From Taxillus chinensis (taxonomy: Eukaryota > Streptophyta > Magnoliopsida > Santalales > Loranthaceae): DNA of 64,000 nt. Below are positions 16,785 through 53,359 of the stretch, one piece after another (positions within the stretch are counted from its first letter, which is position 1; each line of letters opens with the position of its first letter). The stretch lies in assembly GCA_023512835.1 (NCBI GenBank), contig CM042092.1:41000258-41064257 (forward strand), read 5' to 3'. The position numbers and the translations under genes were made by a program. Under the pieces are notes generated by a model. The model worked only from the letters and a program-made list of their open reading frames with translations, was not told the DNA's origin and did no database searches.

Positions 16785-16792
16785 TATAAATA
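16785..16792 (+). promoter_or_regulatory. Probable LTR TATA box (Sirevirus A)
   Basis: TATAAATA lies downstream of the repeat array and about 290 bp before the LTR end. It would drive the genomic RNA. Confidence 0.6.
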
Positions 16793-17079
16793 TTCATACT
16801 TATACTTCATGTAAATGGGTGCTTAGGTGGGCAAAAATAGAAAAGGAACTTGGCTAGTGTGTGAGTTCATTGTTGTAAACAGAGTGTAAGAGAGTGTTTG
16901 CTTCTATTTTGTTGTAATCACCTTGTGATAATAAAACAAAATACTTCCACTATCTGGTTATCTTCCGCAGTGATTCTATCACTTAAACTAGATAAGTCTT
17001 TGTGTCTTGAGAGAAAAGAAAGAGTTAGAACAAGAGCCTATTCACCCCCCCCCCCTTTAGGCTCCAAGGGACCATCAAG

Positions 17080-17091
17080 TGGTATCAGAGC
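17080..17091 (+). promoter_or_regulatory. Primer-binding site, Sirevirus A
   Basis: TGGTATCAGAGC, complementary to the 3' end of initiator methionine tRNA, starts two bases after the LTR. This is the usual copia primer site. Confidence 0.95.
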
Positions 17092-17139
17092 AAGTTCTAC
17101 TTCGTTCTAAGTAGAGATCCCACTCTTTCAATCTCAGAA

Positions 17140-24125: not shown

Positions 24126-24200
24126 CAATTGTGACAATCCACGTATACTCTTATGTCGCATGCTTTTGAGGAGGAATAATGATGATTCATTAAATGCCTA
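24126..24200 (+). promoter_or_regulatory. Conserved non-coding block upstream of ORF3, copy A
   Basis: Shares ATCCA(C/A)GTAT, TTTTGAGGAGGAATAATGAT and TTCATTAAATG with 44703-44782 and, on the minus strand, 53685-53766. It lies about 335 bp before the ORF3 start. Confidence 0.6.
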
Positions 24201-24385
24201 TCTCGGGTTGCACACACACTTCTCTGGATGGCAACCAGTTGTAATCTCTACTTGGTCATGCGGTCTCCACGACATCGTTTTATTCGAAGACGCCTCGATA
24301 TCCAGAAAAATGACATCAGCATGTCGCGCGGGTCCCCACCTCACTCCCACATTCCTAGACCCGCTAACATTTGCGGACTCGGTCT

Positions 24386-24390
24386 TATAT
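24386..24390 (+). promoter_or_regulatory. TATA-like box before ORF3 of Sirevirus A
   Basis: TCTTATATG centred 119-121 bp before the ORF3 ATG at 24507, the same spacing as in B and C. A pyrimidine-rich leader with AAATCCCTAAACC follows. Confidence 0.5.
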
Positions 24391-24506
24391 GTTCTGATCA
24401 TTCCTGCGAAGCACGAGTATTGCTCATTTCAAATCCCTAAACCTCTCGTTGCTCCTTCGACTGTCAAGACCTCACCTTTCCTCTTTTCCTTCCCATCAAA
24501 TCTGCC

Positions 24507-27216: not shown

Positions 27217-27400
27217 GAGAGAAGGTAGCAACTATGATCTTCAAGTATAGTAAGCCTTATGTACCTTAGTGAAAAATCTGTATTAAGGCTGATTTGTATT
27301 TAGTTGCTGATTAATGAAATTGGTTGTGTTGCGTATTCTGTATGATATTCTTTTGCATCGCTTACCAGATCAGATTACAAAGGGTTTGGGCATATCCATA
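27217..27400 (+). other. Sirevirus A 3' untranslated stretch
   Basis: Short AT-rich sequence between ORF3 and the polypurine tract. In another frame the codons just after the stop (ELREK..MIFKYSK) match the C-terminal end of the C and B proteins, so the ancestral ORF3 probably ended slightly further downstream. Confidence 0.6.
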
Positions 27401-27412
27401 ATTGGGGGAGAT
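27401..27412 (+). promoter_or_regulatory. Polypurine tract, Sirevirus A
   Basis: ATTGGGGGAGAT directly before the 3' LTR. It primes plus-strand DNA synthesis. The motif is the same in B and, on the minus strand, in C and E. Confidence 0.92.
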
Positions 27413-28706
27413 TGTTGGATCAAACCCAGAATTTGGATAATGCTGATAAAGCCTTATGTAATTTGATCTGAGATCTTTTGTGTTTATTTGATCATTGCAG
27501 AAGGTATGTCACTAATCCAAAGATGCACTCGTGAGAGCAAAGCTAAGGACAGGATACATAATCCTGATCCGGACAAGAGTTAGTGTCGTCAAACACTTGG
27601 TAAATAACCAAGTAACAAATACATACGGAATAAGGAACAATCCTACGGACTAAGAACTTAAAGGATAAGTGCGGAGTAAGGAAAATAAGTGCGGAGTAAG
27701 GAAACTAGATGCGGAGTAAGGAAACCAGATGCGGAGTAAGGAATCCGGATTTATTACTCGCCCGGAGTAAGGAACTTACATACGGAGTAAGGAACTTACA
27801 TACTGAGTAAGGAACTTACATACGGAGTAAGGAACTTACATACTGAGTAAGGAACTTACATGCGGAGTAAGGAACTTACATGCGGAGTAAGAAAGCGCTG
27901 ACACGGAATAAGTCATCAGACTTTTCAAGACTCGCCCGGAGTAAGGAACTTACATACTGAGTAAGGAACTTACATGCGGAGTAAGGAACTTACATGCGGA
28001 GTAAGGAAGCGCTGACACGGATTAAGGATTCCAGTACTGAATAGATACGGAGTAAGCAACCACTGACACGGAGTAAGGTTCCGAGCTTCATTAACTACGG
28101 AGTAAGGAAAATTACACCGGACCAAGAAGACATTGCTCCAACTAAACCGCACTTAAAGTTATCAGCTCGTGGTGTCCCGATGTAAGACGAATGTATTGAG
28201 AACCTGAAGAATCTTACACGTGGATCATCCGGATATGTGGACACAACCTTAATTGTATCTTGGAACTCACAAAGACACTTATACTCTTCAAATCCAAGAT
28301 CTTGAGCTCCACAATCCGCAGCAGTCAAGGCAGACAGATTACCGAGGGATAGTTAGTGCGGAACGCATTCCGGAACTTCAAGTTCCAAGGTTGTCTCTTA
28401 GGAATGTTTTGTATAAATATTCATACTTATACTTCATGTAAATGGGTGCTTAGCTGGGCAAAAATAGAAAAGGAACTTGGCTAGTGTGTGAGTTCATTGT
28501 TGTAAACAGAGTGTAAGAGAGTGTTTGCTTCTATTTTGTTGTAATCACCTTGTGATAATAAAACAAAATACTTCCACTATCTGGTTATCTTCCGCAGTGA
28601 TTCTATCACTTAAACTAGATAAGTCTTTGTGTCTTGAGAGAAAAGAAAGAGTTAGAACAAGAGCCTATTCACCCCCCCCCCCCCTTTAGGCTCCAAGGGA
28701 CCATCA
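27413..28706 (+). repeat. Sirevirus A 3' LTR
   Basis: Nearly identical to 15766-17077, shorter by one 20-bp array unit and with a 13-C run instead of 11 C. Ends GGGACCATCA and is followed by the GAACA target duplication at 28707-28711. Confidence 0.95.
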
Positions 28707-30369: not shown

Positions 30370-31776
30370 TTGTGCATGCCAAGAGGGGAGCTTATACCAT
30401 TTAATCGGGAACCTGAAAGGTTGTTCAGAGCTTGTCGCAGGGCAGCTAGGGAAGCAACACGAGAGGCTAAAGAAGCACTGCAAGGCTTAGAGCATTCAGT
30501 AGGTGAATTGATGGCAGATTTAAGGCCTGATGGTGGTGCACCGCAAGGAGGGGCCAATTACAATGGCCAATATCCAGAAGAAGAGGGTAATAGGTTTATG
30601 CCCAGAACCTTCTTAGACTACGCGAGACCGATGATGTCAGACCATTATTCTGGGATTAGGCAAATAAGAGTTCAAGCAAATAGTTTTGAGCTGAATCCGG
30701 CTTTAATTAATATGGTGAGCAACAACGCTTTTGGAGGAACAGCAGTGGATGATCCACACCAGCATTTGATGAGGTTCTACCAAATGTGTGACACCATAAA
30801 GATAAACAATGTGTCGGAGGAGGCAATAAAGCTAAGGCTTTTCCCTTTCTCCTTAAGAGATAGAGCTCTTGGGTGGTTTAACAGTTTACCAGCAGGTTCA
30901 ATAAATACTTGGGAGGAGATGCAGACTAAATTCATGTCTAAATACTTTCCTCCTTCCAAGGTGATCCAGCTCAGAGGGGAAATTAGCAGATTCAGGCAAG
31001 ATGAGATGGAGACTCTTCATGAGGCTTGGGAGCGCTTTAAAGATTTGAGAAGAAGATGCCCTGACCATGGAAGACTCCAATGGATTCAAATTGAATCTTT
31101 CTACACTGGTCTTCAGTCTCACTCACAAGATAAGGTGAATGCAGCTGCTGGAGGATGTTTAATGAATCTAGAGCCTGATGCTGTAGCTGAACTCTTGGAG
31201 AGACTGTCTTTGGCTGATTGGCAGTGGTCGAATGTACGGACTTCAAGGCCAAGGGAGAAAATAGCTTCAGTTGACAATTCTTCCAACGATATGCAAGACC
31301 AGATCCGGGCTTTAGTGAAAAGCATGGAAGTGTTGGCTCTTAAAGTCGGAGGATCACAACAAGCCTCACCAGTAGTTAAGCAAGGATGGAGTGGAGCTGA
31401 AGAAGCAAATTATGTTGGAGGGAAAGGCTTGTACCAGAAGCAGCAATATTATCCTCAACAACAAGGACAAGGGTACAATCACAACCAACAACAATCTCAG
31501 GCATATCAGAAGAACCAGAACCGAGGGGGAGATACATCAGTTCAGTATAAATATGTGCCCCCAAGGATGAAGCAAAATCCGTATGCTACTGATAATTATT
31601 TACATCCACCTCCAGGATTCGAGCAGCAACAGCCTCAGCCTCAACAACAAAGAGGAAGAACATATCTGAATGAGGATGAGACAGCTAAAAGGAAGATGGG
31701 TGATTTGGAGGAAAGGGTAGGCAGCATGGAATCTGCAATGAAGAATATGGAAAAGCTGCTCGTAAGTATCGCATAG
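30370..31776 (+). CDS. Athila-type gag
   Basis: An open 468-codon frame. It has a charged N terminus (RAAREATREAKEALQ), then the Retrotrans_gag core: AFGGTAVDDPHQHLMRFYQMCDTI, FPFSLRDRALGWFNSLP, INTWEEMQTKFMSKYFP and ETLHEAWERFKDLRRRCP. A Gln-rich region (QQYYPQQQGQGYNHNQQQ) and a C-terminal coiled coil (DLEERVGSMESAMKNMEKL) follow. No CCHC knuckle is seen, as usual for Athila-like gag. The first Met is at 30370; the initiation site could instead be the second Met (30376). The TAG at 31774-31776 may be a mutation, since related sequence (ITLRSGQAL) continues downstream. Confidence 0.88.
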   Translation: MCMPRGELIPFNREPERLFRACRRAAREATREAKEALQGLEHSVGELMADLRPDGGAPQGGANYNGQYPEEEGNRFMPRTFLDYARPMMSDHYSGIRQIRVQANSFELNPALINMVSNNAFGGTAVDDPHQHLMRFYQMCDTIKINNVSEEAIKLRLFPFSLRDRALGWFNSLPAGSINTWEEMQTKFMSKYFPPSKVIQLRGEISRFRQDEMETLHEAWERFKDLRRRCPDHGRLQWIQIESFYTGLQSHSQDKVNAAAGGCLMNLEPDAVAELLERLSLADWQWSNVRTSRPREKIASVDNSSNDMQDQIRALVKSMEVLALKVGGSQQASPVVKQGWSGAEEANYVGGKGLYQKQQYYPQQQGQGYNHNQQQSQAYQKNQNRGGDTSVQYKYVPPRMKQNPYATDNYLHPPPGFEQQQPQPQQQRGRTYLNEDETAKRKMGDLEERVGSMESAMKNMEKLLVSIA

Positions 31777-32737
31777 AATGCAAATCAAGGAGTTTCAGCC
31801 AAATCTTTTCCAAGTGACACTAAAGTGAACCCCAAGGAGAGTTGTAAGGCTATCACTTTAAGGAGTGGGCAAGCATTAAAGGAAACTGAAGAGCCTAAGA
31901 AGAGGGCCATATCAGAAGAACAAAGCAGACCCTGGAAGCTGATGACCAAGGAAAATTCGATAAAGAAGAAGAAAAGGTGCAAGAAAAGAAGGACCAACAG
32001 TTGACTAAAGGCAGACCAGTTAAAGAACAAGGGCTGAAAGAGCTAAGGCCTACCATGCCATTTCCTCAGCGGTTAAGAAATCAAAGGGTTGAGGAAGAGT
32101 ATGAGCGCTTCCTGAGTTTATTCAAGCGGCTTAAAATTAATATCCCATTTGTGGAAGTTTTAGAGCAGATGCCCAGGTATAGAAAATACATTAAAGATGT
32201 TGTGAAGAAGAAGAGAACGTATGGGGACCATAAGACGGTAGCTATCACAAACGAGGTAAGCAGTGTTGTCCAAAGGAATTTGCCCATCAAGTATAAAGAT
32301 CCCGGCAGTTTTAACCTCCCTTGTGTGATTGGAAATGCGCCGCAGCAGCAGGACCTTTGTGATTTAGGGGCTAGTATCAACTTGATCTCCTTTTCTCTAT
32401 ACAAGCAGCTTGGGCTCACAGGAATGAAGCCAACTTCCATCTCATTGCAGTTTGCGGACCGGTCTACTGGAAGACCTGAAGGAATCATTGAAGATGTGCT
32501 AGTTAAGGTGGGCTCCTTAATTTTTCCAGTAGACTTTGTAGTTTTGGAAATGGAAGAAGATAGAGGAGTTCAGCTCCTCCTTGGAAGACCGTTTCTCAGA
32601 ACAGGGTGTGCACTGATAGATATGGCTCAAGGGCAACTGACCTGAGAATTAATGAAGAGACCTTAGTCTTCCATATGGGGAAGGATTTATAAGGTCAAGA
32701 GGAGGAGGATTGCCTATGGGTTGAAGATTTTGAGGAG
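31777..32737 (+). pseudogene. Athila-type gag-pol linker and aspartic protease (frameshifted)
   Basis: After the gag stop, sequence encoding KAITLRSGQAL continues, then the frame changes near 31970. The 31977-32645 frame carries MPFPQRL and FLSLFKRLKINIPFVEVLEQMPRY. A retropepsin-like domain follows with DLGASINLISFSLY as the active site (D-L-G in place of D-T/S-G) and LLLGRPFLRTGCALID. A stop at 32643 and another frame change separate it from RT. Confidence 0.8.
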
Positions 32738-35700
32738 TTGGTGGAAGACTTTTTGGCAGAAGAAATTACCACAGCAAATGATGGAGTGCTCCAGCTTATA
32801 GAAGCTCAACAAGATGAAGAAGTGGACTTGACAGCTGGGGAGGATGAGCAAACATCAAATTCTCTGGAGCAAGCAAAGGAGGAGAAGGAAGAGGACATAC
32901 CTCCAGCTCCAGAACTGAAGGAACTGCCTAGACACCTAAGGTATGAATTTCTAGACTTCACAAATAAATTTCCAGTTATAGTTGCTGCTAATTTAAATGA
33001 TGTAGAGTGCACTCAACTGCTAGAAATCCTTAGGAAACACAAAAAGGCCCTAGGGTGGACCATTAAAGACATTAGGGGTATAAGTCCAGGGATTTGTATG
33101 CACAAAATTCTAATGAATGATGACTTTAAACCCATAGCTGAAAGACAAAGAAGATTAAACCCTACCATGAAAGAAGTAGTAAGAAAAGAAATTCTAAAAT
33201 GGAAAAATGCGGGTATAATTTATGCTATTTCAGATAGTGAGTGGGTGAGTCTGTTGCATGTTGTGCCCAAGAAAGGGGGTATGACAGTGATTAAAAATGA
33301 GAAGAATGAATTGATCCCATCTCGAACTGTGACGGGATGGAGAGTGTGTGTTGACTATAGGAAGCTGAATAAGGCCACCAGGAAGGATCACTTTCCCCTT
33401 CCTTTCATTGACCAGATGTTGGATAGGTTAGGTGGCTATAGTCACTACTGCTTTTTAGATGGATACTCCGGGTATAATCAGATCATGGTTAAACCTGAAG
33501 ACCAAGAAAAGACCACTTTCACGTGCCCCTTTGGCACCTTTGCTTTTAGGAGGATGCCATTTGGGCTATGCAATGCACCTGCCACCTTTCAAAGGTGCAT
33601 GATGGCCATTTTCCAGGGCCTGGTGGAGGAGATCATGGAGGTTTTCATGGATGACTTTTCGGTGTTTGGTTCCTCCTACCAACAGTGTTTGAAAAATTTA
33701 GATTTGGTCTTAGAAAGATGTGAGGAGAAGGAACTAGTCCTAAATTGGGAAAAATGTCATTTTATGGTAACTGAGGGGATAGTTCTAGGGCACAAGGTGT
33801 CTTCACAAGGTTTGGAGGTGGACAAGGCAAAAATCTCCACTATTGAGACTTTGCCACCTCCAACAAATGAAAAAGGGGTGAGAAGTTTCCTTGGCCATGC
33901 TGGCTTTTATAGGAGATTCATTAAGGACTTCTCTAAAATTGCAAAACCCATGAGTAGGCTGTTAGAGAAGGACACAAGCTTTGAGTTCAATGCAGATTGC
34001 TTAGGCACTTTCAACATCCTCAAGGGTAAGTTAGTCACTGCACCAGTTATAGTCACACCAGACTGGGCTCAGCCTTTTGAGCTAATGTGTGACGCAAGTA
34101 ATTATGCTGTGGGGGTAGTCTTAGGGCAAAGACGTGATAAGGTGTTTAGGGTCATTTACTATGCTAGTAAGACCTTAGATGATGCTCAACAGAACTACAC
34201 CACCACTGAAAAAGAGTTGCTGGCCGTGGTTTATGGCTGCAACAAGTTTAGACCCTACCTTTTTGGGTCTAAAGTAATTGTTTATACTGATCATGTAGCT
34301 TTGAAATATTTATTTGCTAAAAAGGAAGCTAAGCCACGCTTGATTAGGTGGGTACTCCTTTTACAGGAATTTGATCTTCAAATTAGAGACACAAAGGGAG
34401 CCCTAAATTCTGTGGCTGACCACCTCTCCCGTGTGGAGAATGCACCTAAGTCTCTACCCATTGTAGATGACTTTCCTGATGAGAAGTTGTTTGAGGTGCA
34501 CCAGCTTCCTTAGTTTGCTGATATAGCAAACTATTTAGCCACTGGGTTTATACCCAAGCAATTAGACTACCATCAGCGAAAGAGGTTGGTAGTGGATGCT
34601 AAGAAATACATTTGGGAAGACCCTATTCTCTATAGGAGGTGTTCAGACCAAATAATTAGAAGGTGTGTCCTTGAGGAGGAGATAGATGACATAATATACC
34701 ATTGTCATTCATCACATTATGGGGGCCACTTTGGGGTGCAGAGAATTGTGGCTAAAATCATGTAGTGTGGCTTCTATTGGCCTCACATGGTGAAAGACAC
34801 CTATGTCTACATCAAAACCTGTGATAGATGTCAAAGGGTAGGTGGTCTGTCTAGGAAGAATGAGATGCCATTAACTGGAATTCTTCCAGTTGAAATTTTT
34901 GATATATGGGGCATTGATTTTATGGGGCCACTCCCCAATTCTGATGGGTATTCATATATCCTTTTGGCTGTGGATTATGTGTCAAAGTGGGTAGAAGCTA
35001 TACCAACTAGAGTGAATGATGCTAGAGTAGTGACTCACTTCCTTACCAGAAACATCTTTAGCCGATTTGGGACACCAAGGGCTATAATTAGTGATGAGGG
35101 TAGTCACTTCTGCAATAAATTGTTTGACAAGTTGTTGAACAAATATGGGGTAACTCATAGTAAGTCTTTAACTTACCACCCACAAGCTAATGGACAAGCA
35201 GAGGTGTCCAACAGAGAGATTAAAGTCATTTTAGAGAAAACTGTTAGAGCAAATAGGAAAGACTGGTCTCAAAGGCTTGATGAAGCCTTATGGGCATATA
35301 GGACAGCCTATAAAACTCCCATTGGGATGTCACGTTACCGTATTCTTTATGGGAAGGCTTGTCACTTACATGTGAAATTAGAGCACAAGGCTCACTAGGC
35401 CTTGAGGAAGTTAAATTTTGATCCACAAGAGGCCAAAGAGCTTAGGATGACTCAATTAATTGAATTAGATGAGTTCAGGATGGATGCCTATGAAAGTGCT
35501 AAAATTTATAAAGAAAGAACCAAGAAATGGCATGATAGGCAATTAACCAATGAACCTTTAACCTTGGGGCAGAAAGTTCTCTTATTTAACATAAGGTTAA
35601 GGCTATTTCCTGGAAAATTAAGGTCCAAGTAGATGGGACCTTTTGTGATAGTTGATAAGAAGCCATATGGGAGCTTTGAGCTCTAAGCTGTAGATGGCAA

Positions 35701-36373: not shown

Positions 36374-36902
36374 TGTTGGTCCCTCTGAGCCTAGACGGGG
36401 GGGGGGGGGGGGGAATAGGCTCTTATGGAAAACTCTTTTTCATCTCTGGCACAACACTTGTCTGGTGAAAAGATAGAATTAGTGCGAAAGATAACCAAAT
36501 AGTGGAAGTATTCTGTTTTATTATCAAAAGATAATTACAACAAAATCTAGCAAATTAAAGCTGATGAAACTTTTCAATCTACTAAAACTCTCTTGTACTC
36601 TGTTTATAATTACTCACACACTAGCCAATTTAATCTCTAAGAGCTCTTGTACATGTACGTGCATATGTGAAAATATACAAGGTTTAATATATATAGACAC
36701 CCCTGGGAGACAATCTTGGAACTAGATTTTCTGAGCACTGTGTAGCATTGAAGTTCTTCTCGAAAAATGCTTCTGCTTAAATTGTTGTGGATGTGGTGCT
36801 CAAAATCTTGGGTCTGTAAACATATTAAATATCTTCGTGTGATCCCAATTGTATTTAAGGCTCTGACCACATCTCCGTGTGATCCACGTGTAAGACGACT
36901 TA
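36374..36902 (-). repeat. Sirevirus C 3' LTR, part 1
   Basis: Starts TGTTGGTCCCTCTGAGCC (reverse of an LTR end), with a 17-G run near 36397. It is cut at 36902 by element B; ACTTA at 36898-36902 is repeated at 49319-49323. Confidence 0.92.
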
Positions 36903-38256
36903 TGTTGGATCAAACCTAGAATTTGGATAATGCGGAACAAACCCTTTGTAATTTGACTCGAGATGTTTCATGTTTACTATTAAGTCTGTGCAGATGAGTT
37001 AACTCTAATCCGGACCTACTCGTGTGAGAACAAAGCTAAGGACAGGATACATAATCCTGATCCGGATCATCATGAGTATCGTCATTCACTTGGTACATAA
37101 CCGAGTCTTCATCCGGAGTAAGGACTTTTCGTGCGGACTAAACACTTGACAAAACGACTTGAGGAACCCGTGTCTAACTCTCAACTTGACTAAGTCAATT
37201 GATACGGAATAAGATTCCAAGTCTATCACTCGCACGGAATAAGAGAGACTTGTTGCGGAGAGAGAATCGAAATTGTCACTCCACTGGACTAAAGAAAAAG
37301 AAGACACGGACTAAGAAATCCGAATCTCATTCAAACGGAGTAAGGACAATTGTTGCGGAGTAAGGACAACAAATGCGGAATAAGGAATCTGACCCATTAC
37401 TCATGTGGAGTAAGGATTCACTGATACGGAGTAAGCATTCAGTACCTACTTTATGCGGAGTAAGAAAGCGCTGATGCGGAATAAGCTCTCCGAGCCTATA
37501 TTTCATGCGGAGTAAGAGGCGCTGACACGAAACAAGGATTCCAAGACTTCATTCACACGGAGTAAGCAACCACTGACACGGAGTAAGGATCCGAGCTTCG
37601 CTAATACGGAGTAAGGAACCTTACGACGAACTAAGAAGACACTGCTTCATCATTTCCAAGCCGCTTTTATTGCAATCAGCTCACTTCGTTCCGATGTAAA
37701 ACAAACCCGTTGAAAACCAAAATTCTTACACGTGGATCATGCAGAGATGTGGACGCGATCTCAAATGCAATTAGAATCAAGCAAGAATTCACCACAACTT
37801 ATGCTTCCACTATTTCGAGCTCCACATCCGCAGCAGTAAAAGCTTCAACATTTTCCGATGAAGAACTTCAATGCTTCACACTACTCGAAAAATGCAGTTC
37901 TAACATAGATTCTTAGGATGTCTATATATACCTGAAGCAATGTAAAATATAAAAATGCACGCGCCTACTAATACTCATATACTTACAAGCGCGTATCGTG
38001 TGAAATAGCTTATATAGAGACTTACAGCCAAGTGTGTGTAACCATAACAGAGTGTTGAGTTGTAATCAGCTAAAGCGCTGTTTTGCTTCATTGTAATTAT
38101 CTTCAGATAATAAAGCAACATACTTCCACTACCTGGTTAATCTTCCGCACTGATTTTATCCGTTTAACCAGAGTGAGTGTCTAGCCATATATAGAGAGAG
38201 AAAGAATTTTCAAAGAGCCTATTCACCCCCCCCTTCTAGGCTCTTTGGGACCAACA
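36903..38256 (+). repeat. Sirevirus B 5' LTR
   Basis: TGTTGGATCAAACC to GGGACCAACA. Carries about fifteen variants of CGGAGTAAGGA, less regular than in A. TATATATA at 37923-37930 is the likely promoter and the C run is 8 long. Confidence 0.95.
37923..37930 (+). promoter_or_regulatory. Probable LTR TATA box (Sirevirus B)
   Basis: TATATATA in the position equivalent to TATAAATA of element A. Confidence 0.55.
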
Positions 38257-38258: not shown

Positions 38259-38270
38259 TGGTATCAGAGC
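38259..38270 (+). promoter_or_regulatory. Primer-binding site, Sirevirus B
   Basis: TGGTATCAGAGC, methionine-tRNA type, two bases after the LTR. Confidence 0.95.
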
Positions 38271-38317
38271 AAGTTTTACCTGCTCGTAGAGATCCCTCAC
38301 TCCCTCTCAACTTAACA

Positions 38318-40630: not shown

Positions 40631-43600
40631 CAGGAGCATCTATGGAATTCACTGCCATCTCACTTGAGGTCAAAGATCAATCAAAGCAAGTGGATACTCG
40701 ATAGCGGATGCTCCGGACATATGACGGGTGATAAGTCTCTGCTCGTGGATGTTACTGACAAACAAGGCCCATCCGTAACATATGGTGACAACAGTAAAGG
40801 TAAGACTGTGGGGTATGGCACTTTAACCAATGGCTGTGTATCAATTACTAAGGTTGCATTAGTCGAAGGTTTGAAGCATAATCTGCTGAGTGTCAGTAAT
40901 TTATGTGACAAAGGATTCACAGTTTCCTTTTTGTCAAACACATGCACAGTTAGAGATAACTTATCCGGAGATATTAAGTTATTCGGATCAAGAGATGGGG
41001 ACATATATTCCATGGTCTTGAGAAATAATTCTTCTGACCCTGTATGCTTCCTCACTACAGCATCACACAAAGATAGTTGGCTATGGCACAAGCGTTGCGC
41101 ACATTAAATTTTAAGACTTTGTCTAAATTAGCGTCGCTTGATTTGGTCACTAGTTTGCCTAAACACAAATACTCCAGAGACACACTCTGTCGAGAATGCC
41201 AACTTGGCAAACAGACCAAACATAGTTTTAAGAGCAAATCAGTTAATTCAATTACTGCTCCCTTACAGCTACTTCACATGGATCTTTGTGGTCCCATTTC
41301 TATTTCTTCACTAGCTAGTGCGAGATATACCCTTGTGGTTATCGATGACTTCACCAGGTACACATGGGTGTTGTTCCTGAAATCTAAGGATCAAACCTTT
41401 GAACACCTTGTTGATCTCTTCAACTGGATAAACAACTCACAAGGACTAAGCATTAAATGCATCAGGAGTGATCATGGTACAGAATTTGGCTTTTCAGATA
41501 TGAGGTCATATTGTTCTGAACAGGGCATTCAGCATGACTTCTCTACGCCCAGAACTCCACAATAAAATGGGGTAGCTGAGCGCAAGAATCGCACTTTAGT
41601 CGAGGCTGGCAGATCAATGTTAGCAGGGGCAAAGCTTCCTCTCTGTCTATGGGCTGAAGCCGTGTCTACTGCCTGCTATATTCAGAATAGAACTCTTATA
41701 AATAAATCTACCATGAAAACACCCTATGAGATGTGGAAAGGCCGAAAGCCTTCTATTTCACACTTCAGAACTTTTGGGTGTACTTGCTACGTACTGAACA
41801 ATGGAAAAGAATCCCGGAGTAAATTTGAACCAAAATCTGATGATGGGATATTTGTTGGGTATTCATTTCATAGCAAGGCTTATCGGGTTTTCAATAAATA
41901 ACTCTTCAAAGTTGAAGAATCTATCCATGTGACCTTTGATGAAGCTAACCTGGATTGGTCGAAAGTTGGTTCTCCAAGTTCTAATGTGCAGGATCAAGAC
42001 GACAACATTGACTACTCAAAGTTTATGAATGTTCCTGTCGCTCCTACTGACCAACCACGTGGCACCAGTAAAGAACGAAGAAATGAGGTAGATGATGCTA
42101 CGGATGAATCAGACTCGGGATTTCCACTTAACTCCGGACATATTCCTTCGGGTATTCAAAATACCAGAGTACCTTCAAGTCCATCCGGACCAGCTAATAC
42201 AAAAATGAATAGTAATGGAGAACCGCAAAATACTCCAAAACCTATTGATATGGATAATGTTGGCCCGGAAGAAGCTCACATAGCAGACGAACAAGAACCA
42301 CCTAATCTGACAGAGCTTCAAATCATTGAGTATTCACCACCACTTGCACAAAACTATAGGTGGACTCGAAACCACCCTCAAGAATAAGTGATTGGTGATC
42401 CTACTGTTGGTGTTAGAACAAGGGCAGCCACCTCCAACATGTGCCTCTACTCTTGCTTTTTGTCGCAAATAGAGCCAAAGGTGGTGGAAGAAGCACTTTA
42501 AGATTCAAATTGGATAGACGCCATGCAGGAAGAGTTAAATTAGTTCAAGAGGAATGATGTGTGGACTCTAGTACCTAGGCCAAAGTCTCAACAAGTCATT
42601 GGAGTTAAATGGGTGTTCCGGAACAAACATGATACGGACAGAATTGTAATCCGGAACAAAGCCTGGCTGGTAGCCAAGGGTTATCGTCAAAAAGAAGGAA
42701 TCGATTATGACAAAACCTTTGCCCCAGTAGCTAGACTTGAGGCAATCAGAATGTTCTTAGCATACGCTTCATACGAAAACTTTAAAGCTTATCAAATGGA
42801 TGTCAAGAGTGCATTTCTGAATGGAGATCTTCAAGAGGAGGTATATGTTGAACAACCTCCAGGTTTCATTGAACCCAAGGCTGGACATCTGGTTTACAAA
42901 CTAAGGAAAGCATTGTATGGATTGAAGCAAGATCCAAGAGCCTGGTACGACACACTTTTGGAATTCTTACTTGCTCACAACTTCCAAAAAGGGAAGATTA
43001 ACACCACACTATTCTTACGGAAAGAGAAAGGACATACTCTGATCGTACAGATCTACGTGGACGATATCATTTTCGGATCAACTAATCTGAAGCTTTGTGA
43101 TGAGTTCACCAAGTTGATGACTGGCAAGTTTGAGGTGAGTATGATGGGAGAACTATCCTACTTCCTTGGGATCGAAGTCAAACAACTGAAGGAAGGGATC
43201 ATCATCAACCAAGCTAAGTACACTCATGACTTAATCAAGAAGTTTGGTATGGAAGGTTCATCTCTTGTCAAAACTCCAATGCCAGTCAGTGCCAAGTTAG
43301 ACCCAGATGTTGATGGCAAATCAGTGAATGTGACTGAGTACAGAGGGATGATTGGATCCTTGCTGTATTTTATAGCAAGTCGCCCGGACATAATGTTTGC
43401 AACTTGCATCTGCGCATGATATCAGGCGAATCCCAAAGAGTCACATATGCTTCATGTAAAATGGATATTAAGGTATCTCAAAGGGACAATGAATTTGGGA
43501 CTCTGGTACCCAAAAGAGTCCAACTTTGCCTTATTCGGATATTCTGATGTTGATTTTGCCAGGTGTCGCATAGACAGGAAAAGCACCAGTGGTACATGCC

Positions 43601-44001
43601 AATTCCTTGGAAACAGAATGATCTCCTGGTTCAGTAAGAAGCAGAATTCCGTATCAACCTCTACTACTGAAGCGGAATATATAGCTGCTAGGAGTTGCTA
43701 CGCACAGCTTCTCTAGTTGCAAAGTCAACTTACTGACTACGGCTTCAACATGACATCTGTTCCACTCTACTGTGACAATACCAGTGCTATTGCTATCAGC
43801 AATAATCCCGTCATGCATCCAAAGACTAAACATATTGAGGTCAGGTATCATTTCATTCCCAACCATGTTCTTAAAAAGCACATATCCTTGGAACATGTTG
43901 CTACTGAAGATCAACTGGCGGATATACTTACAAAGCCCTTACCTGATGTACGATTTTTTAAACTTCTTCTCAAATTAGGTATGCTTGATTTTTCTGCATA
44001 A
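40619..44001 (+). pseudogene. Sirevirus B pol: protease, integrase, RT, RNase H
   Basis: Protease has WILDSGCSGHMTGD. One T is missing near 41105 compared with A and shifts the frame. After it, one frame holds the integrase (LCRECQLGKQTKH, MDLCGPISISS, RSDHGTEFGF, NGVAERKNRT), the linker, RT ([11 protein letters not shown], catalytic YVDDIIFG at about 43057) and RNase H ([17 protein letters not shown]). It ends EDQLADILTKPLPDVRF ... GMLDFSA. Stops lie near 41563, 41899, 42385, 42499, 42541, 43417 and 43714. Several stand where A has CAA, CAG or CGA. Confidence 0.92.
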
Positions 44002-45103: not shown

Positions 45104-47770
45104 ATGGCATCCCAAGCTCTCTATGGTGTTGTTCCTGGCCATCTTGTCGATTGGTCCGGAATCTCTGATCCTCCAGCATGGCTCCACGAGGTTCGCCAGC
45201 TACTCGAGCACAGCAACCTTTTCGCGCTTGTCTCTGCCCCGGCCGATCTTCTAGTGTCGGACGTCCTGGCCTTCTATCAGCACTCTACCTCAACTGAGGA
45301 GTATATCTTTTCGGTGGTTCGAGGGGAACCTATCAAGATCACACCTTAGGTGATCCGGGACGTCTTCAACCTTCCTACCGGCGATGACATCCGGCCAAAC
45401 ACTACTGCCATGGCTGCTTCCATGGGGTGTCCTAATAAGGTGAAGGAGTACAAAATGAAGTCTTTCCATGGTCGTCACCACTGTATGGCCACCATACTCA
45501 GCCGGTGTCTTCTGGCTCGCTCCACGGCTCTCGACACGGTTTCGTACGATCTTCTGCTGGCGATGTACGCGGTTTTTGAGTTACTGCCACTTGACTGGGG
45601 CAACTTTCTCTTCCGGGTGATGCGGAAAGGGAAACGGAACTCGTCCTTCGGATGGATTCTGTCCCAAACTTTCCGGCATCTTCATCCCACGCACTTCCAG
45701 AGTGAACTGGTGATTCCCTTCCCGGTGACCTACTACTTCCGACATCTTACTGCCGATGGGACCCTCACCGTTCGCCGCCCTCCAGTCTCCCGTGCCCTTG
45801 CTGCTGTTTTGGAACAGCAAGCTAGTTCCGTTGGTGAACCTGTTGCCAACTCGGGTCACGAAGTCAGTTCTGCTCTCCGGTCCGTCCACTCCCACATCCG
45901 GTCCGTTGCCGCTCTGGCACGCTCCCGCAGTTCGCTGCACAGCATTCGGGCTGACCCGTCTACTGCTGCAGGACCCTCTCAGCCGCACTTCCTTGAGGTT
46001 ACCACCTCCACCTCACCTGCTGATGTCCCTGCCTCTCTTGCTGCTGCTGCTGCTGATACTCTCGCACCCATCTTTCCGGTCACAGCTGTTGTTGCTACTG
46101 TTCTTCCAGACCTCCCATCTTCTCTTGCGGAATCCTCTCCCGCTCACTCTCCGGACCACCAGGACTACCTCCACCATCTTCCCACCGACCTACTGAATGA
46201 CTGCTGGCTGCGCTTCAGCCTCGCCATTACTGCCGACATCCCAGAACCTACCCTCCGGGTGTTTTACGCTCAACACACCCAAACCCCGGAGGAAATGCTT
46301 ACTTGGAACTGCTACCACGGCTTTGTAACGCCTTCTCTCCTTCAGGCTGCACCCCCTGCTGCTGCCTCCTCCGGCCCTGCCCATAACGCACGAACACCTG
46401 TCCCTACTGAGGCGGGTGCCTCTTATCCTTCGGATATCCCTACCATTGACCTCTCCGGTCAAAGTGGATCTGCCGTACCTCCTGCTGCTGCTGCTGCTGT
46501 ACAACCACCGTCCTCTCCTGCCGCTGCCGACTCTGCCCTGCCCACACCTGCCCCTCTTCATGCGGGTGAGTCCTCAAAAGCTCCCGCCTTTGGTCTTGGG
46601 CGCGCCTCTTTTGCCACGATTTTATCTGAGGTTGCTTTCTCCACCCAACTCGATCGCCTTACTGAGGACAGTCATCTTCAGACCTAGGCCCTTTCCGACC
46701 ATGTCCAGGCCATGGGTGCTGAGCTTCTTTCTGCCTTCTCCTCTTCCTCTCTCTCCATGGATCAGAAGCTTGAGCGGCTCACCACGTCTTTCTCTGCCTT
46801 GTCTACCTCCATTGCGGACTTAACGCAAGTCGCGGCCAGTCCCTCCCGCTTTCGCCAATCTTCCAAACCGGGGGAGAAATCATCTGATCCTTCCCCTCCT
46901 TCCACTACTGGCGTTGCCTCTCGCAAATGGTCTGCACCTGCTCTTCCTCCAGGCCTTCCGCTGCCTAAACGCAGCCGTTTCTCCACTGGCCAGACTAGCT
47001 CTCCCACTCCTGCTGTTCCATCTAGTGTCATCTCATTCCTCCCATCATACGCGGAATTGCATCCAGATAATGCTGATGGGAGCCTTCTTGCTGCGGCCAA
47101 GGCCTATGCCTCCTCTACTGCCGAGCGCCGATGTGTGTCTGCCTCGTCCCCCTTCGAACCTCAAGACATCCGGACCATACTGTCTGAGGAGGGACAATTT
47201 TCCACTGACGACATCGACAACTATGCTCTTGCGGTAAAGATGGAGTTGAGGCTATTCCCCTCTTTACTTGAGGAAGGCCTTGATTTTGATGTTCTTCCTT
47301 GCTGGGTTGAAAACCAATTTCCTGCTGTGGACATTTTTCTATCCTACATCTATGGTACAGCAGAGAACAGCCGACCATGGACCTCTCTGTCCATCATTTT
47401 CATCCCTTTCCGGGTCGACTCCCCACATTTCATGCTGACTGTTTTTCTAATCAAAGAGAAGAAAATCTTGCTTCTGGATTCTCATCAGATTGTTGACCGC
47501 CAGATTAGAAAGAATCAGATGTGGAGTCTCATTCGAACCTTGTCTGATGCAATCAGACAGAGTTCTCTCTACGAAGACTTGGATTTACCGCCTCTTGGTC
47601 AGGATGAAGTACTTATGGGGATGATCCGGAACAAGAAGAATGTGCCCCAACAACCCGATGGAAACAGTTGTGGAGCCTTTGTCTGCTACTTCCTGAAATC
47701 GGTTATCTACTTTGATGATAACTGGAAAAATATCATCGAGTTCACCAAGAAGCAAACAATGGCACTATGA
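45104..47770 (+). pseudogene. Sirevirus B ORF3: Ulp1-like (C48) cysteine protease protein, in one frame
   Basis: From the ATG at 45104 one frame of 888 codons is broken only by TAG at 45347-45349 and at 46684-46686. The N-terminal region has PGHLVDWSGISDPPAWL and CMATILSRCLLARSTALD. A middle block has YLHHLPTDLLNDCWLRFSLA and LRVFYAQHTQTPEEM. Pro/Ser/Ala-rich linkers, a coiled-coil-like stretch (MDQKLERLTTSFSALSTSIADL) and a nuclear-signal-like PLPKRSRF follow. The C48 domain has SIIFIPFRVDSPHFMLTVF (His codon 47426), LLLDSHQ (Asp codon 47477) and VPQQPDGNSCGAFVCYF (Gln, and Cys codon 47669). The TGA at 47768 may itself be a mutated Arg codon, because C continues in frame at this point. No signal peptide or membrane helix is visible. 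Confidence 0.85.
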
Positions 47771-47961: not shown

Positions 47962-49318
47962 TATTAGATCAAACCTAGAATTTGGATAAAGCAGAACAAA
48001 CCCTATGTAATTTGACTCGAGATGTTTCATGTTTACTATTAAGTCTGTGCAGATGAGTTAACTCTAATCCGGATCTACTCGTGTGAGAACAAAGTTAAGG
48101 ACAGGATACATAATCCTGATCCGGATCATCATAAGTATCATCATTCACTTGGTACATAACCGAGTCTTCATCCAGAGTAAGGACTTTTCGTGCGGACTAA
48201 ACACTTGACAAAACGACTTGAGGAACCCATGTCTCACTCTCAACATGACTAAGTCAATTGATACGGAATAAGATTCCAAGTCTATCACTCGCACGGAATA
48301 AGAGAGACTTGTTGCGGAGAGAAAATCAAAATTGTCACTCCACTAGACTAAAGAAAAAGAAGACACGGACTAAGAAATCCGAATCTCATTCAAACGGAGT
48401 AAGGACAATTGTTGCAAAGTAAGCACAACAAATGCGGAATAAGGAATCCGACCCATTATTCATGTGGAGTAAGGATTCACTGATACGGAGTAAGCATTCA
48501 GTACCTACTTTATGTGGAGTAAGAAAGCGCTGATACGGAATAAGCTCTCCGGGCCTATATTTCATGCGGAGTAAGAGGCGCTGACACAAAACAAGGATTC
48601 TAGGACTTCATTCACACGGAGTAAGCAACCACTGACACGGAGTAAGGATCCGAGCTTTGCTGATACGGAGTAAGGAACCTTACGACGGACTAAGAAGACG
48701 CTACTTCATCATTTCCAAGCCGCTTTTATTGCAATCAGCTCGCTTCATCCCGATGTAAAACAAACCCGTTGAAAACCTAAATTCTTACACGTGGATCATA
48801 CGAAGATGTGGACGCGATCTCAAATGCAATTGGAATCAAGCAAGAATTCACCACAACTTATGCTTCCAATATTTCGAGCTCCACATCCGCAGCAGTAAAA
48901 GCTTCTGCAATTTCCGATGAAGAACTTCAATACTTCACACTGCTCGGAAAATGCAGTTCCAAGATATATTCTTAGGATGTCTATATATACCTGAAGCAAT
49001 GTAAAATATAAAAACGCGCGCGCTTACTAATACTCATATACTTACATGCGCGTATCATGTGAAATAGCTTATACAGAGACTTACAGCCAAGTGTGTGTAA
49101 CCATAACAGAGTGTTGAGTTGTAATCAGCTAAGGCGTTGTTTTGCTTCGTTGTAATTATCTTCAGATAATAAAGCAACATACTTCCACTACCGGGTTAAT
49201 CTTCCACACTGATTTTATCCGTTTAACCAGAGTGAGTGTCTAGCCATATAGAGAGAGAGAAAGAATTTTCAAAGAGCCTATTCACCCCCCCCCCCTTCTA
49301 GGCTCTCCGGGACCAACA
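47962..49318 (+). repeat. Sirevirus B 3' LTR
   Basis: Begins TATTAGATCAAACC, with TG mutated to TA, and ends GGGACCAACA. The C run is 11 long. The ACTTA duplication follows at 49319-49323. Confidence 0.94.
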
Positions 49319-49323
49319 ACTTA

Positions 49324-50186: not shown

Positions 50187-50455
50187 ATGGATATGCCAAA
50201 CCCTTTGTAATCTGATATGGTTAGTTAAAGAAGCAAGACACACATAGAGATAAGGATAACTCATTTCCACTAAGATAACAACAATAGAACATCATAAGCC
50301 TTAGTACAAATACAATACAATTCAGGAATAAAAGGCTTACTATACTTGAAAATAGTTGCTGCTGCTTTCTCCCGAAGTTCCATCGCTTGCTCCTTGGTGC
50401 TGTGATGGTAGTTGCTCCATCTAGAACCTTTCTTCATATAATATTGCATGAAAAA

Positions 50456-53359
50456 TCAGAGAAAGGCTCCACAGCTCTCTCCATCTGCCTGTTGAGGCAC
50501 AGTATTCTTGTCCAATATCACCAAGTTCAGAATAGTGGGAGGAACCAAAGGAGATTCACCAATTGCTTCAAAAAGTTTACTGCTTCATACTGTAGCCAAA
50601 AGTGTTCGTAACAATGGTTCCATTTGACTTCTCCACTTTTGGTATTCTACTACCTAGTAGGAATCAACAAGAATTACCTTCCTTGTGGGGATTGTGAAAA
50701 TTGCAAGCATCAGATGCGGAGTGCTAATCCTATAAGGAATGAGAACAGTTGTAAGATCTTTCCATGGTTTACTATTCTCAGTAGTTCCATTGATGTAGGT
50801 CTCGACAAGATCAATTACAGGAAGATAACTGTCGGACCAACTCGGTAGGATGTTAATCTGATGTGCATCATTAGACAAGGAAGGGAACAACCTCATTTCC
50901 TCCTTGACTGCCAGAGTAAAGTTGTCCCCATCTTTAGTGGTGAACAATCCCTTCTCAAAAATTAACGTACTCAAATCTTTAGGAGAGAAGGGAAACAAAA
51001 CTGTCAAACATCTTCACTCTGCAGTAAAGGAGCTTGCAAAAGCTTTCATTGCTGCTCGAATACTCCCATCTTCATTAGTTGGATCCAGTTCCGCGTATGA
51101 TGGCAGGAAGGTAACAGCAGGAGCCGGTGCCAAGGAAGAAGGAGCTGCAGTGGAGGAGCTTGGAATGCCTGGAGTAGCACCAGAAGGTCCAAAAGAACGG
51201 CTACGTTTGGGAACCGAGATACCCGAAGGAAGCATAGGTGCAAACCGCTTACCGGTAGTGTCAGGAGCAAGAGCAGCAAAAGGATCAAAGGGTACAATCT
51301 CCCCCGGTTTGGCAGATCCACGAGAGGTGCTAGGAGGTTGGGCCACGGCATTAGCCAGATCCTTAAAGGAGGTAGATAAATCGCAGACTTAGGTAGCAAC
51401 CAAACCCATTTTGTGCTCTATGGAAGTGGAAGAGCTGGAGAGGGCAGAGAGAAGCTGTGCGCCAAGTGCATCGACTTTGGAGGCAATGGCAGAGATTTGA
51501 GCGCTGTGAGCTTAGGCATTACAGTCCAGCTGGGCGAAAAGCGCAGCTTCGAATGGAACCATGCCAAAAGAAGCACACCCAAGAGCAAACTCAGGCGCCT
51601 TGGAGGACTCCCCCGCATGTAGAGGTGCAGGTGTGCGCAAGGCAGAAGAGTCCGCAGGAGGAGAGGATAGAGGTACATTAATAGAAGCAGCAAGCACAGC
51701 CGATCCACTTTGACCGAAAAGGTTAACAATGGGAATGTCCGCAGGAGAAGAGGGACTGACTCTAGCAGGGAGAGAAGCTCGTGCGTCATGAGTCGGGACG
51801 GACAAAACAGCAGTGGGAGGAGCGGCCTAAATCATTGATGGCATCAAAAAGTCATGATTAGTGTTCCAACAAATCATATCTTTCGGGGTTTGTGTATGGC
51901 ATGTATAATACACCCAGAGATCATGGTCAGGGATGGTGGCTGTGTGGGCGAGACTGAAGCGAACCCAACAGTCGGAAAGTATGTCGGTGGGAAGATGGTC
52001 GAGGTAGTCTTAATGCTGGAGAGGCAATGCTGGAGTGATGTCTGGAGAAGATACGTGGACATCAGTAACTGCAACAGTAACCGCAACATCAACTAGAGCA
52101 GTAATAACAGGAGAGGCAGCTGCAGTGGGAGGAGCGGCCTGAATCATTGATGGCATCAAAAAGTCGTGATCAGTGTTCCAACAAATCATATCTTTTGGGG
52201 TTTGTGTATGGCATGTATAATACACCCGGAGATCATGGTCAGGGATGGTGGCTGTGTGGGCGAGACTGAAGCAAACCCAACAGTCGGAAAGTATGTCGAT
52301 GGGGAGATGGTCGAGGTAGTCTTAATGCTGGAGAGGCAATGCTAAAGTGATGTCTGGAGAAGATACATGGACATCAGCAACTGCAGCAGTAACCGCAACA
52401 TCAACTAGAGCAGCAATAACAGGAGGGGCAGCTGCAGGTGCATCAACAATAGATGGAGCTGATGAATCATCCTAAAGACAACTAGGCTAAGAAGGCCCTA
52501 CAGCTATAGAAGAATCAGCATGAATGTCATGCTAAGAGCTGTGGGAGAGTGCAGGAGCGACAGTCGACTGAACTCAGGAGGATCGGTGAGCAAAACTAAC
52601 CTTGTGACCCAAACTTGCAACGGGGTCACCAACGGAACTACCTTGCTGTTCCGAAACAATAACACGAGCATGGGGGACAGGAAGCCGGCAGACGTTGAGC
52701 GTTCCCTCAGAAGTGAGATAGCAGAAGTAGAAATTTTGAGGGAAGGGGATGACCAAACGATCATTGAAGTGATCCGGATGTAGATGTCGGAACACCGTAG
52801 GGAGAATCCGCCCAAAAGATGAATTCCTTTGACCATTGCTCAGCAGCTGGAATAGGAAGGAACCCCAATCGAGCGGCGGACACTCAAAGACCGCATACAT
52901 TGCGAGTAGCAAGTCATACGGGACCAAGTCGAGAGCCGTTGTGCGAGCCATTAGGCAGCGGCTTAGTATGGTGGCCATACAGCGGTAATGGCCCTAAAAA
53001 GACTTCAACTTATACTCCTTCACCTTATTGGAGCAACCCATCGATGCAGCCATGGGTTGTGCATTCAGTCGATAGTGAGAACCAACAGGAAATTGAAACA
53101 CATCCCTAAGAATTTGGGGTGTGATAACAATCGGCTGACCTCTTACAGCAGAGATGATGGCATCATCGATGCGGGTAAAGTGCCAGTAAAAGGAGAGGGT
53201 GTCTTCAATAAGAAGATCCACTGGTTCAAACACGAGAGCAAGCAAGTTGCTGGCGGCGAGAAGAGTGCGAAGCTCCAGGAACCATGCTGGAGGGTCAGAA
53301 ACTCCTTCCCAATCCACGAGGTGTCCGGGAGTAACGCCATAGAGTGCCTGGTTTGCCAT
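50456..53359 (-). pseudogene. Sirevirus C ORF3: Ulp1-like (C48) cysteine protease protein, stops only
   Basis: ATG at 53359 begins MANQALYGVTPGHLVDWEGV. All recognisable pieces down to 50456 lie in the same frame over 2.9 kb: CMATILSRCLMARTTALD, VFECPPLDWGSFLF, the linker, SVPKRSRSFG, FLPSYAELDPTNEDGS, LIPYRISTPHLMLAIF (His), VILVDSY (Asp) and VPQQADGESCGAF (Gln, and Cys codon 50471-50473). Breaks are stop codons, many of them TAG (for example 52994 and 50654), with TGA at 52574 and 50456. An in-frame 312-bp tandem duplication lies in the linker. The sequence past 50456 still reads like the C-terminal tail of the protein down to about 50340. Confidence 0.8.
51811..52436 (-). repeat. 312-bp in-frame tandem duplication within ORF3 of Sirevirus C
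   Basis: CAGTGGGAGGAGCGGCCT occurs at 51811 and again at 52123, and GAGGGGCAGCTGCAG-like sequence closes both units. The copies are highly similar along their length. The unit equals 104 codons, so the frame is kept. A and B have one unit. Confidence 0.9.

What the first reader, a model, noticed from the sequence alone, without database searches (positions are those of the whole stretch)
45104..47770. Ulp1-like C48 cysteine protease encoded as the third ORF of a Sirevirus copia element
ORF3 lies inside a TSD-bounded LTR element, between pol and the polypurine tract. Its C terminus carries the C48 layout PHF, LDSHQ and VPQQPDGNSCGAF with His, Asp, Gln and Cys in order. Sireviruses are known for an env-like ORF here. 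Ulp1-like domains are known as cargo of plant Mutator-like elements, but I know of none described as a regular Sirevirus ORF. The idea that the element manipulates SUMO or a related modifier is inference.
Basis: partly seen in the sequence, partly recalled or inferred. Interest (0 to 1): 0.88.

Follow-up and report, generated by a model that had tools for sequence, protein, structure and literature searches.

The report
SUMO-protease-like gene in plant retrotransposons
In this plant genome, many copies of two kinds of retrovirus-like jumping element carry, in the slot where an 'envelope-like' gene of unknown role is usually reported, a gene for a protease resembling the enzymes that remove SUMO tags from proteins, which makes the role of that gene testable.

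Summary
The stretch 45104-47770 lies between RNase H and the polypurine tract of a TSD-bounded, Sirevirus-type Copia element (36903-49318) and ends in a Peptidase_C48 domain (PF02902, E 2.2e-10) with His, Asp, Gln and Cys in order. In this copy two in-frame TAGs break the frame.

It is no isolated capture. Two more elements in the window carry the ORF. Of 12 RNase H loci sampled without regard to C48, 9 have C48 downstream on the same strand. A divergent Sirevirus-type lineage has the same layout. So does the Ty3/Gypsy family that also lies in this window: 18 of 150 integrase hits have C48 downstream, 0 upstream, 1 on the other strand. Between lineages 19-28% identical, the four catalytic columns are among the 7 of 244 that are invariant; dN/dS of the domain is 0.09-0.39.

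Best reading: the 'envelope-like' ORF here is a Transposase_32-like plus C48 protein that probably removes SUMO or a related modifier, perhaps to blunt silencing; that function is inference. Ten library searches showed me no report of C48 in a plant LTR retrotransposon.

The parts
36898..36902 (.). target-site duplication ACTTA, left of element B
36903..38256 (+). 5' LTR of element B
   Evidence: K2P to the 3' LTR 0.049
38259..38270 (+). primer binding site TGGTATCAGAGC (initiator-Met type)
41077..41562 (+). integrase core fragment (PF00665) of B
42559..43416 (+). Copia reverse transcriptase (PF07727) of B
   Evidence: E 3.8e-75
43717..43998 (+). RNase H region of B (named by position and sequence, recalled; no Pfam scan of this piece)
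   Evidence: query
45104..45346 (+). ORF3 of B, piece 1: N-terminal part of the Transposase_32-like region, starting ATGGC; ends at an in-frame TAG (45347)
45350..46684 (+). ORF3 of B, piece 2, same frame: rest of the N-terminal region and Pro/Ser/Ala-rich linker; ends at an in-frame TAG (46685)
46712..47767 (+). ORF3 of B, piece 3, same frame: linker with PKRSR and the C48 domain (Pfam match 47366-47710)
47426..47428 (+). catalytic His codon
47477..47479 (+). catalytic Asp codon
47651..47653 (+). oxyanion Gln codon
47669..47671 (+). catalytic Cys codon
47953..47961 (+). polypurine tract GGGGGAG and AT before the 3' LTR
47962..49318 (+). 3' LTR of element B
49319..49323 (.). target-site duplication ACTTA, right of element B
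15766..28706 (+). second TSD-bounded element (A): LTRs 15766-17077 and 27413-28706, TSD GAACA, PBS 17080, polypurine tract 27404
25732..27213 (+). C-terminal part of ORF3 of element A, open for 494 aa, with C48 (PF02902 E 3.2e-5, 24.3 bits)
50375..53359 (-). ORF3 of the rearranged third copy C, broken by stops
30370..35398 (+). Ty3/Gypsy gag-protease-RT-RNase H-integrase; its family carries the same 3' ORF elsewhere (L031); here Sirevirus-type sequence begins at about 36186, before the place where that ORF would be expected

Best explanation
Shown: the third, 'envelope-like' ORF of these Sirevirus-type Copia elements encodes one long protein with an N-terminal Transposase_32-like (PF20167-like) region, a Pro/Ser/Ala-rich linker with a basic PKRSR motif (in A, B and C), and a C-terminal Peptidase_C48 domain that keeps His, Asp, Gln and Cys under purifying selection. 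It is a regular part of the elements, in at least two Sirevirus-type lineages and in a Ty3/Gypsy family of the same genome. Inferred: the protein is made from its own start codon, enters the nucleus, is targeted by its N-terminal region to chromatin or to the element's own particles, and removes SUMO or a related modifier from host or element proteins. I think the main benefit is to weaken silencing or restriction of the element, a retrotransposon parallel to the Ulp1-bearing VANC (KIU) genes of VANDAL transposons. My odds: C48 fold and selection for catalysis 0.95; SUMO-type rather than ubiquitin-type substrate 0.6; anti-silencing or anti-restriction as the main role 0.45.
For: PF02902 over cut-off in B and A. 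Two low-confidence models, from B and from A, both find SENP/Ulp1/NEDP1 proteases first in Foldseek's PDB search (best E 6.5e-5 and 1.1e-5). Catalytic residues: H in 40, D in 40, Q in 35 and C in 38 of 41 rows, all four in 35 of 41; all four among 7 of 244 invariant columns in 10 representatives. dN/dS of the C48 domain 0.14-0.30 among A, B and C and 0.09-0.39 in six further pairs. Linkage: 32 of 150 RNase H hits have one of the 150 C48 hits downstream, 20 of them at 3.9-4.0 kb, 0 upstream, 1 on the opposite strand; 9 of 12 blind RNase H loci. Gypsy: 18 of 150 integrase hits, 14 of them at about 3.0 kb, 0 upstream, 1 opposite. An ATGG within 15 nt of the expected ORF3 start in 15 of 15 loci that have the N-terminal match. 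Background for the mechanism: in yeast, lower SUMOylation raises RNA of the Copia element Ty1 (PMC8585004, abstract and one results section); KIU-bearing VANDAL elements counter silencing (PMC13317346, passages).
Confidence: 0.55

Rival explanations
1. The C48 domain is a maturation protease of the element, like the CE-clan core proteases of adenoviruses and poxviruses: it cleaves ORF3 itself or the gag-pol products rather than host modifier conjugates.
For: Adenovirus and poxvirus core proteases appear among the structural matches, below the SENPs in Foldseek. The domain sits at the end of a long multi-domain protein with a Pro/Ser/Ala-rich linker.
Against: Such elements have an aspartic-protease region of their own (recalled for Copia; weak Pfam matches in the Gypsy family). 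SENP and Ulp1 rank above viral proteases in Foldseek. The SENP/Ulp1-type HW (recalled) stands at the catalytic His in the two other Sirevirus-type groups; in A, B and C it is HF.
Confidence: 0.17
2. The enzyme acts on ubiquitin or NEDD8 rather than SUMO, for instance to stabilise the element's own Gag or integrase.
For: C48 relatives with ubiquitin or NEDD8 specificity lie close in the structural lists (NEDP1/Den1; Chlamydia DUBs near the top of VIA-align) and lead the profile search. Sequence alone does not fix the substrate.
Against: Foldseek's best rows are SUMO proteases in both models, although the models are poor.
Confidence: 0.22
3. ORF3 works as an envelope-like or movement protein through its N-terminal half, and C48 is an accessory.
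For: It occupies the env-like slot. MASiVEdb (PMC3414828, passages) describes env-like genes by transmembrane and coiled-coil segments. Borderline hydrophobic stretches exist (largest 19-residue mean 1.80 in B and 1.83 in C).
Against: Those stretches lie inside the Transposase_32-like region and are weak. That region resembles PF20167, which PMC11728184 (passages) calls related to Athila ORF1, with a nuclear-localisation prediction for that sunflower protein.
Confidence: 0.13
4. A passively carried host ULP fragment with no function, as in many transduplications.
For: Gene capture is common in plant transposons; many copies hold stops.
Against: Fixed position in two superfamilies, conserved catalytic residues, dN/dS well under 1.
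Confidence: 0.03

Closest known systems
Sirevirus (SIRE) env-like / eORF-3'F genes
   Same: Forward ORF between pol and the 3' LTR. [quoted passage not shown]
   Different: The words Ulp1, C48 and SUMO do not occur in the main text of that paper. Here the ORF is a Transposase_32-like plus C48 protein. Its Additional file 4, which lists domain matches of eORFs, could not be read.
ULP-bearing MULEs (Kaonashi/KIU) and CACTA-ULP elements
   Same: Plant transposon-borne Ulp1/C48 domains in many copies (PMC2528002 section 10; PMC13317346 passages).
   Different: Those are DNA transposons; here the domain sits in LTR retrotransposons, behind a Transposase_32-like region.
Nematode non-LTR retrotransposons NeSL and Utopia-1_TSP
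   Same: Retrotransposons with an Ulp1-like cysteine protease domain (PMC4640811 passages).
   Different: Non-LTR elements of animals; the domain is at the N terminus of the RT-bearing protein, not in a separate 3' ORF.
Ginger1 DNA transposons
   Same: A C-terminal Ulp1 (or OTU) domain in a mobile-element protein (PMC2836005 passages).
   Different: There it is fused to a DDE transposase of animal DNA transposons.
Athila-type 3' aORF with Transposase_32
   Same: A sunflower Athila 3' aORF has a PF20167 match (PMC11728184 passages), like the Gypsy locus L032 here.
   Different: The words Ulp1, C48 and SUMO do not occur in that main text. That the Gypsy family here is Athila is recalled, not tested.
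SENP/Ulp1 SUMO proteases and NEDP1
   Same: H-D-Q-C order, PF02902, best Foldseek matches.
   Different: The element lineages are only 19-28% identical among themselves; HF instead of HW at the catalytic His in the A/B/C group.

Membership tests
Peptidase C48 (Ulp1/SENP, CE clan) | PF02902 match over the curated cut-off | tested here: met
   B 41.2 bits, A 24.3 bits, cut-off 20.7
Peptidase C48 (Ulp1/SENP, CE clan) | His, Asp, Gln, Cys in order | tested here: met
   A, B and 8 further representatives; 40/40/35/38 of 41 rows, all four in 35 of 41
Peptidase C48 (Ulp1/SENP, CE clan) | CE-clan fold | tested here: inconclusive
Peptidase C48 (Ulp1/SENP, CE clan) | Cleavage of SUMO or another Ubl | not testable with these tools
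   needs protein
Sirevirus (SIRE) Copia elements | Copia order, integrase before RT, Pfam rve and RVT_2 | tested here: met
Sirevirus (SIRE) Copia elements | Met-type PBS directly after the 5' LTR | tested here: met
   TGGTATCAGAGC at 17080 and 38259
Sirevirus (SIRE) Copia elements | PPT octamer AGGGGGAG followed by AT/TG (PMC2829016 passages) | tested here: inconclusive
   A: TGGGGGAG-AT/TG; B: TGGGGGAG-AT/TA, one and two bases off. Most loci of the second lineage have the exact AGGGGGAG-AT/TG
Sirevirus (SIRE) Copia elements | RT falls in the SIRE clade | not tested
   no reference Copia set at hand
Sirevirus (SIRE) Copia elements | Forward ORF between pol and 3' LTR (often, not always) | tested here: met
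Env-like protein | Transmembrane segment | tested here: inconclusive
   largest 19-residue hydropathy mean 1.80 in B, 1.83 in C, 1.64 in L032; 2.24 in L010, upstream of its ATGGC start
Env-like protein | Coiled coil | not tested
   no coiled-coil predictor was run
Transposase_32 (PF20167) | Match over the curated cut-off of 45 bits | tested here: inconclusive
   ORF scans reach 33.0 (L032, E 7.1e-8), 19.6 (L010) and 12 (A) bits. In the genome, 5 of 147 PF20167 hits precede one of the 150 PF02902 hits at 1.5-1.8 kb, 0 in the controls; one of these 5 is over the cut-off at 45.6 bits
MULE/CACTA-borne ULP | Transposase gene and terminal inverted repeats instead of LTRs and pol | tested here: not met
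   The ORF of A and B lies inside TSD-bounded LTR elements with Copia pol; that of L031 and L032 lies behind Gypsy pol

The most novel reading that the evidence does not exclude
The long-puzzling 'envelope-like' 3' ORF shared by plant Copia (Sirevirus) and Gypsy elements is not an envelope gene. It is an old, exchangeable Transposase_32-C48 module: a SUMO-type protease that LTR retrotransposons use against host silencing or restriction, a counterpart of the Ulp1-bearing VANC genes of VANDAL transposons. The 19 'unrelated' SIRE eORF groups would then largely be one fast-evolving protein family.
Probability: 0.33. Interest if true: 0.9.

Novelty: new variant of a known kind. Interest (0 to 1): 0.73.

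Why it matters
MASiVEdb states that the origin of the env-like gene of Sireviruses and some Gypsy elements is unknown and its function unproven (PMC3414828, passages). A conserved protease domain with its catalytic residues turns that open question into an enzyme assay. It also extends Ulp1-type domains, known from MULE, CACTA and Ginger1 DNA transposons and from nematode non-LTR retrotransposons, to LTR retrotransposons of two superfamilies in one plant genome, which suggests that removing SUMO or a related tag is a recurrent need of mobile elements.

Tried and rejected
Protein database: three searches found no relative (7995, 831 and 3786 candidates). A scan of prokaryotic genome contigs gave 66 pattern matches and no relative. 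I take this to say nothing about plants. NCBIfam (3 proteins) and PHROGs (1 protein): no match. PDB by sequence: nothing below E 0.001.

Considered and rejected: an isolated capture; pseudogene drift only. Internal promoter: a TATA-like motif lies 121-124 nt before the ORF3 ATG in A, B and C and at 90-102 nt in L010, but in none of 11 loci of the second lineage (4 of 15, control rate 0.09), so I do not claim one.

Trees: each lineage is one group (A/B/C 100/100, second Sirevirus-type lineage 100/100, L010 type 97/95), but their joining order is open. In the 15-row tree the two Sirevirus-type groups are apart in all 200 bootstrap trees, while holding them together is not rejected (p-AU 0.128). 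The two Gypsy rows are not one clade. Long branches are present.

Rows dropped: duplicates L003, L005, L007 and the short L040 before (41 of 45 rows kept); ten further rows (out of frame, frame-broken or strongly decayed) before (31 kept); four, whose ten representatives I chose myself; 26 of 41. Of one search's 120 rows, 113 were used; the other 7 are short leading pieces of copies already listed.

PF02902 sample: 24 of the 150 scored hits were fetched, 20 by rank step and 4 picked. 11 have Sirevirus-type pol upstream on the same strand; 7 have only the PPT-LTR motif downstream (one of these, L012, also has weak Gypsy pol pieces); 2 have Gypsy pol; 1 (L027) is unclear; 3 have no such context (L009, L011, L022).

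Papers: the listings were capped (20 of 51; 15 of 560; 25 of 83; 25 of 71; 20 of 1633; 12 of 26). PMC5821449 and PMC4535906, which hold both 'Athila' and 'Ulp1', were not opened.

Full report
What is there. The window is a nest of retrotransposons in a 521-Mb assembly, by its elements a plant. Element B (36903-49318, + strand) has LTRs of 1354 and 1357 bp, TSD ACTTA, a Met-type PBS at 38259 and the tract GGGGGAG-AT before its 3' LTR. Element A (15766-28706, + strand) has the same anatomy with TSD GAACA. A third, rearranged copy C lies on the - strand; the two halves of one - strand LTR lie on either side of B (50174-49315 and 36895-36374), so B was inserted in C's 3' LTR. LTR divergence is K 0.0054 for A and 0.0492 for B, about 0.2 and 1.9 million years at 1.3e-8 per site and year (the rate is recalled).

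The ORF. In B, 45104-47770 starts with ATG and ends with TGA but holds TAG at 45347 and 46685, so three same-frame pieces remain. The last piece matches PF02902 at E 2.2e-10, and the homologous piece of A, open for 494 codons, at E 3.2e-5. The pieces of B find counterparts in A and C over nearly the whole length of ORF3. In the genome, copies of B's C48 domain sit in open frames of up to 974 codons, as expected for one long protein. An ATGG lies within 15 nt of the expected start in 15 of 15 loci that have the N-terminal match, ATGGC in 14. A, B and C share the basic motif PKRSR in an otherwise divergent linker; a motif of that kind turns up in 4-5% of shuffled linkers.

It is regular in the genome. 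The C48 protein of B gave 9105 first-look candidates; the best 150, which alone were scored, are all at least 80% identical, the window's own copy included. RNase H of B gave 9328 candidates and 150 scored. Of the 150 RNase H hits, 32 have one of the 150 C48 hits 1.5-7 kb downstream on the same strand, 20 of them at 3.9-4.0 kb; none has one upstream and one has one on the opposite strand. As the lists are capped, this is a lower bound. In a blind sample of every twelfth RNase H hit (12 of 150), ORF3 sequence lies downstream on the same strand in 11 and C48 in 9, two of them partial in the stretch fetched (L040, L041). L034 has C48 only from an oppositely oriented copy, L039 only the middle of ORF3, L037 nothing.

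Other lineages. Of the PF02902 hits, 24 of 150 were fetched with 10 kb each. Eleven have Sirevirus-type pol upstream on the same strand (RNase H 62-74% identical to B; one, L024, has integrase instead), N-terminal ORF3 homology and, in 8 of the 11, GGGGGAG-ATT downstream; their C48 is only 23-32% identical to B. Seven have only the tract, two have Ty3/Gypsy pol, one is unclear and three have no such context. In L032 a single 674-codon frame behind Gypsy RT, RNase H and integrase holds PF20167-like sequence (E 7.1e-8, below that family's cut-off) and PF02902 (E 5.6e-14). L031's Gypsy pol is 95% identical to the Gypsy pol of this window. Of 150 integrase hits of that family, 18 have an L031-type C48 downstream, 14 of them at about 3.0 kb, and 6 a PF20167 hit at about 2.0 kb; upstream controls 0 and 0, opposite strand 1 and 0. 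Against the PF02902 best-150 list only 1 of the 150 has a neighbour, because that list is filled by other lineages. PF20167 precedes L031-type C48, mostly at about 1.0 kb, in 9 of 147 hits, controls 0.

Selection. Between lineages the domain is 19-28% identical (L011-L031, 36%, and the odd row L009, 15-19%, apart), yet His, Asp, Gln and Cys are all among the 7 of 244 columns that are invariant in 10 chosen representatives. Seven of those ten came from the PF02902 search, which favours such rows, and an eighth (L009) too. In one search all four residues stand in 35 of 41 rows. Of the nine rows there from the blind RNase H sample, five keep all four (L034, from an oppositely oriented copy, L036, L038, L042, L044) and four do not (L033 decayed; L035, L041 and L043 out of frame or partial). 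dN/dS by Nei-Gojobori is 0.14-0.15 for A-B, 0.17 for A-C and 0.30 for B-C in the C48 domain, 0.16-0.42 over other parts and longer pieces of ORF3, and 0.09-0.39 in six further C48 pairs (widest upper bound 0.75). RT of A-B gives 0.06. dS is near saturation in several pairs, so the ratios are rough. ORF3 is far more divergent than pol (A-B: gag-pol 82.5%, linker 52%, ORF3 60%, 3' LTR 66% at the DNA level; dS 0.7 in RT against 1.3-2.7 in ORF3 parts), which points to exchange of the 3' part, to very fast evolution, or to both.

How it may work. Sequence supports a cysteine protease of the Ulp1/SENP kind that is selected for catalysis and is made as the C-terminal domain of an element-specific protein with a possible nuclear signal. 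The rest is inference. In yeast, lower SUMOylation raises Ty1 RNA (PMC8585004). In Arabidopsis, VANDAL elements with VANC-Ulp1 (KIU) genes counter silencing of their kin, and the role of Ulp1 there is unknown (PMC13317346). Against an easy link, the SUMO-binding motif of MOM1 is dispensable for silencing (PMC6084981). I therefore give anti-silencing 0.45, with self-processing, ubiquitin/NEDD8 specificity and an env-like role as rivals. In checking I lowered SUMO specificity from 0.65 to 0.6 because VIA-align and the profile search put deubiquitinases first, and interest from 0.74 to 0.73 because nematode non-LTR retrotransposons already carry an Ulp1-like domain.

What is known. [quoted passage not shown] MASiVEdb calls its origin unknown (passages). 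ULP domains are reported for MULE, CACTA and Ginger1 elements and for nematode NeSL and Utopia-1_TSP (passages or sections). Ten searches of the held library (six of the listings capped, the last on SUMO and silencing) listed no paper that I saw to report C48/Ulp1 in a plant LTR retrotransposon; I saw mostly titles and abstract openings. Only PMC13317346 holds both 'Sirevirus' and 'Ulp1', in passages that do not connect them. Subscription papers, supplements (including Additional file 4 of PMC6317226) and sequence-database annotations were not searched, so an earlier mention is possible.

Limits. One genome only, with no relatives at hand. The SIRE clade was not tested by a tree against reference elements. 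Host ULPs and DNA-transposon ULPs of this plant were not identified, so the source of the domain is open. Activity was not testable.

Noticed in passing
15766-28706: Element A has nearly identical LTRs (6 transitions and 1 transversion in 1292 sites) but frame breaks in gag, pol and the first half of ORF3: either a recent copy moved in trans, or assembly indels.
   Followed up: partly
17140-28706 against 38320-49319: Between A and B, DNA identity falls from 82.5% (gag-pol) to 52% (linker), 60% (ORF3) and 66% (3' LTR) at the end of pol, as if the 3' part had been exchanged.
   Followed up: partly
58671-63999 and 36186-36895: Further LTR and integrase fragments of the same Sirevirus-type group in an order that simple nesting does not explain.
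   Followed up: no
L009 (scaffold C191): The best PF02902 hit of the assembly (84 bits, 1092-codon frame) lies beside an Arb2-like gene on a small scaffold and looks foreign to the transposon set, possibly a contaminant.
   Followed up: partly
7779-10876, - strand: ORFs with PF24924 (DUF7745) upstream of ORFs at 597-7151 that look like Gypsy gag-pol by eye (not scanned).
   Followed up: partly
30967-31073, - strand: Rfam snoR71 match (48.1 bits) inside the gag ORF of the Gypsy element, on the opposite strand.
   Followed up: no
L027: C48 of the second Sirevirus type with Gypsy RT and integrase on the same strand upstream and no Sirevirus context: nested insertion or a further carrier.
   Followed up: no
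genome-wide PF20167 hits: 45 of 147 PF20167 hits are over the cut-off, and 44 of these have no neighbour in the PF02902 best-150 list: another set of elements seems to carry Transposase_32 without a near C48, or with one below the cap.
   Followed up: no
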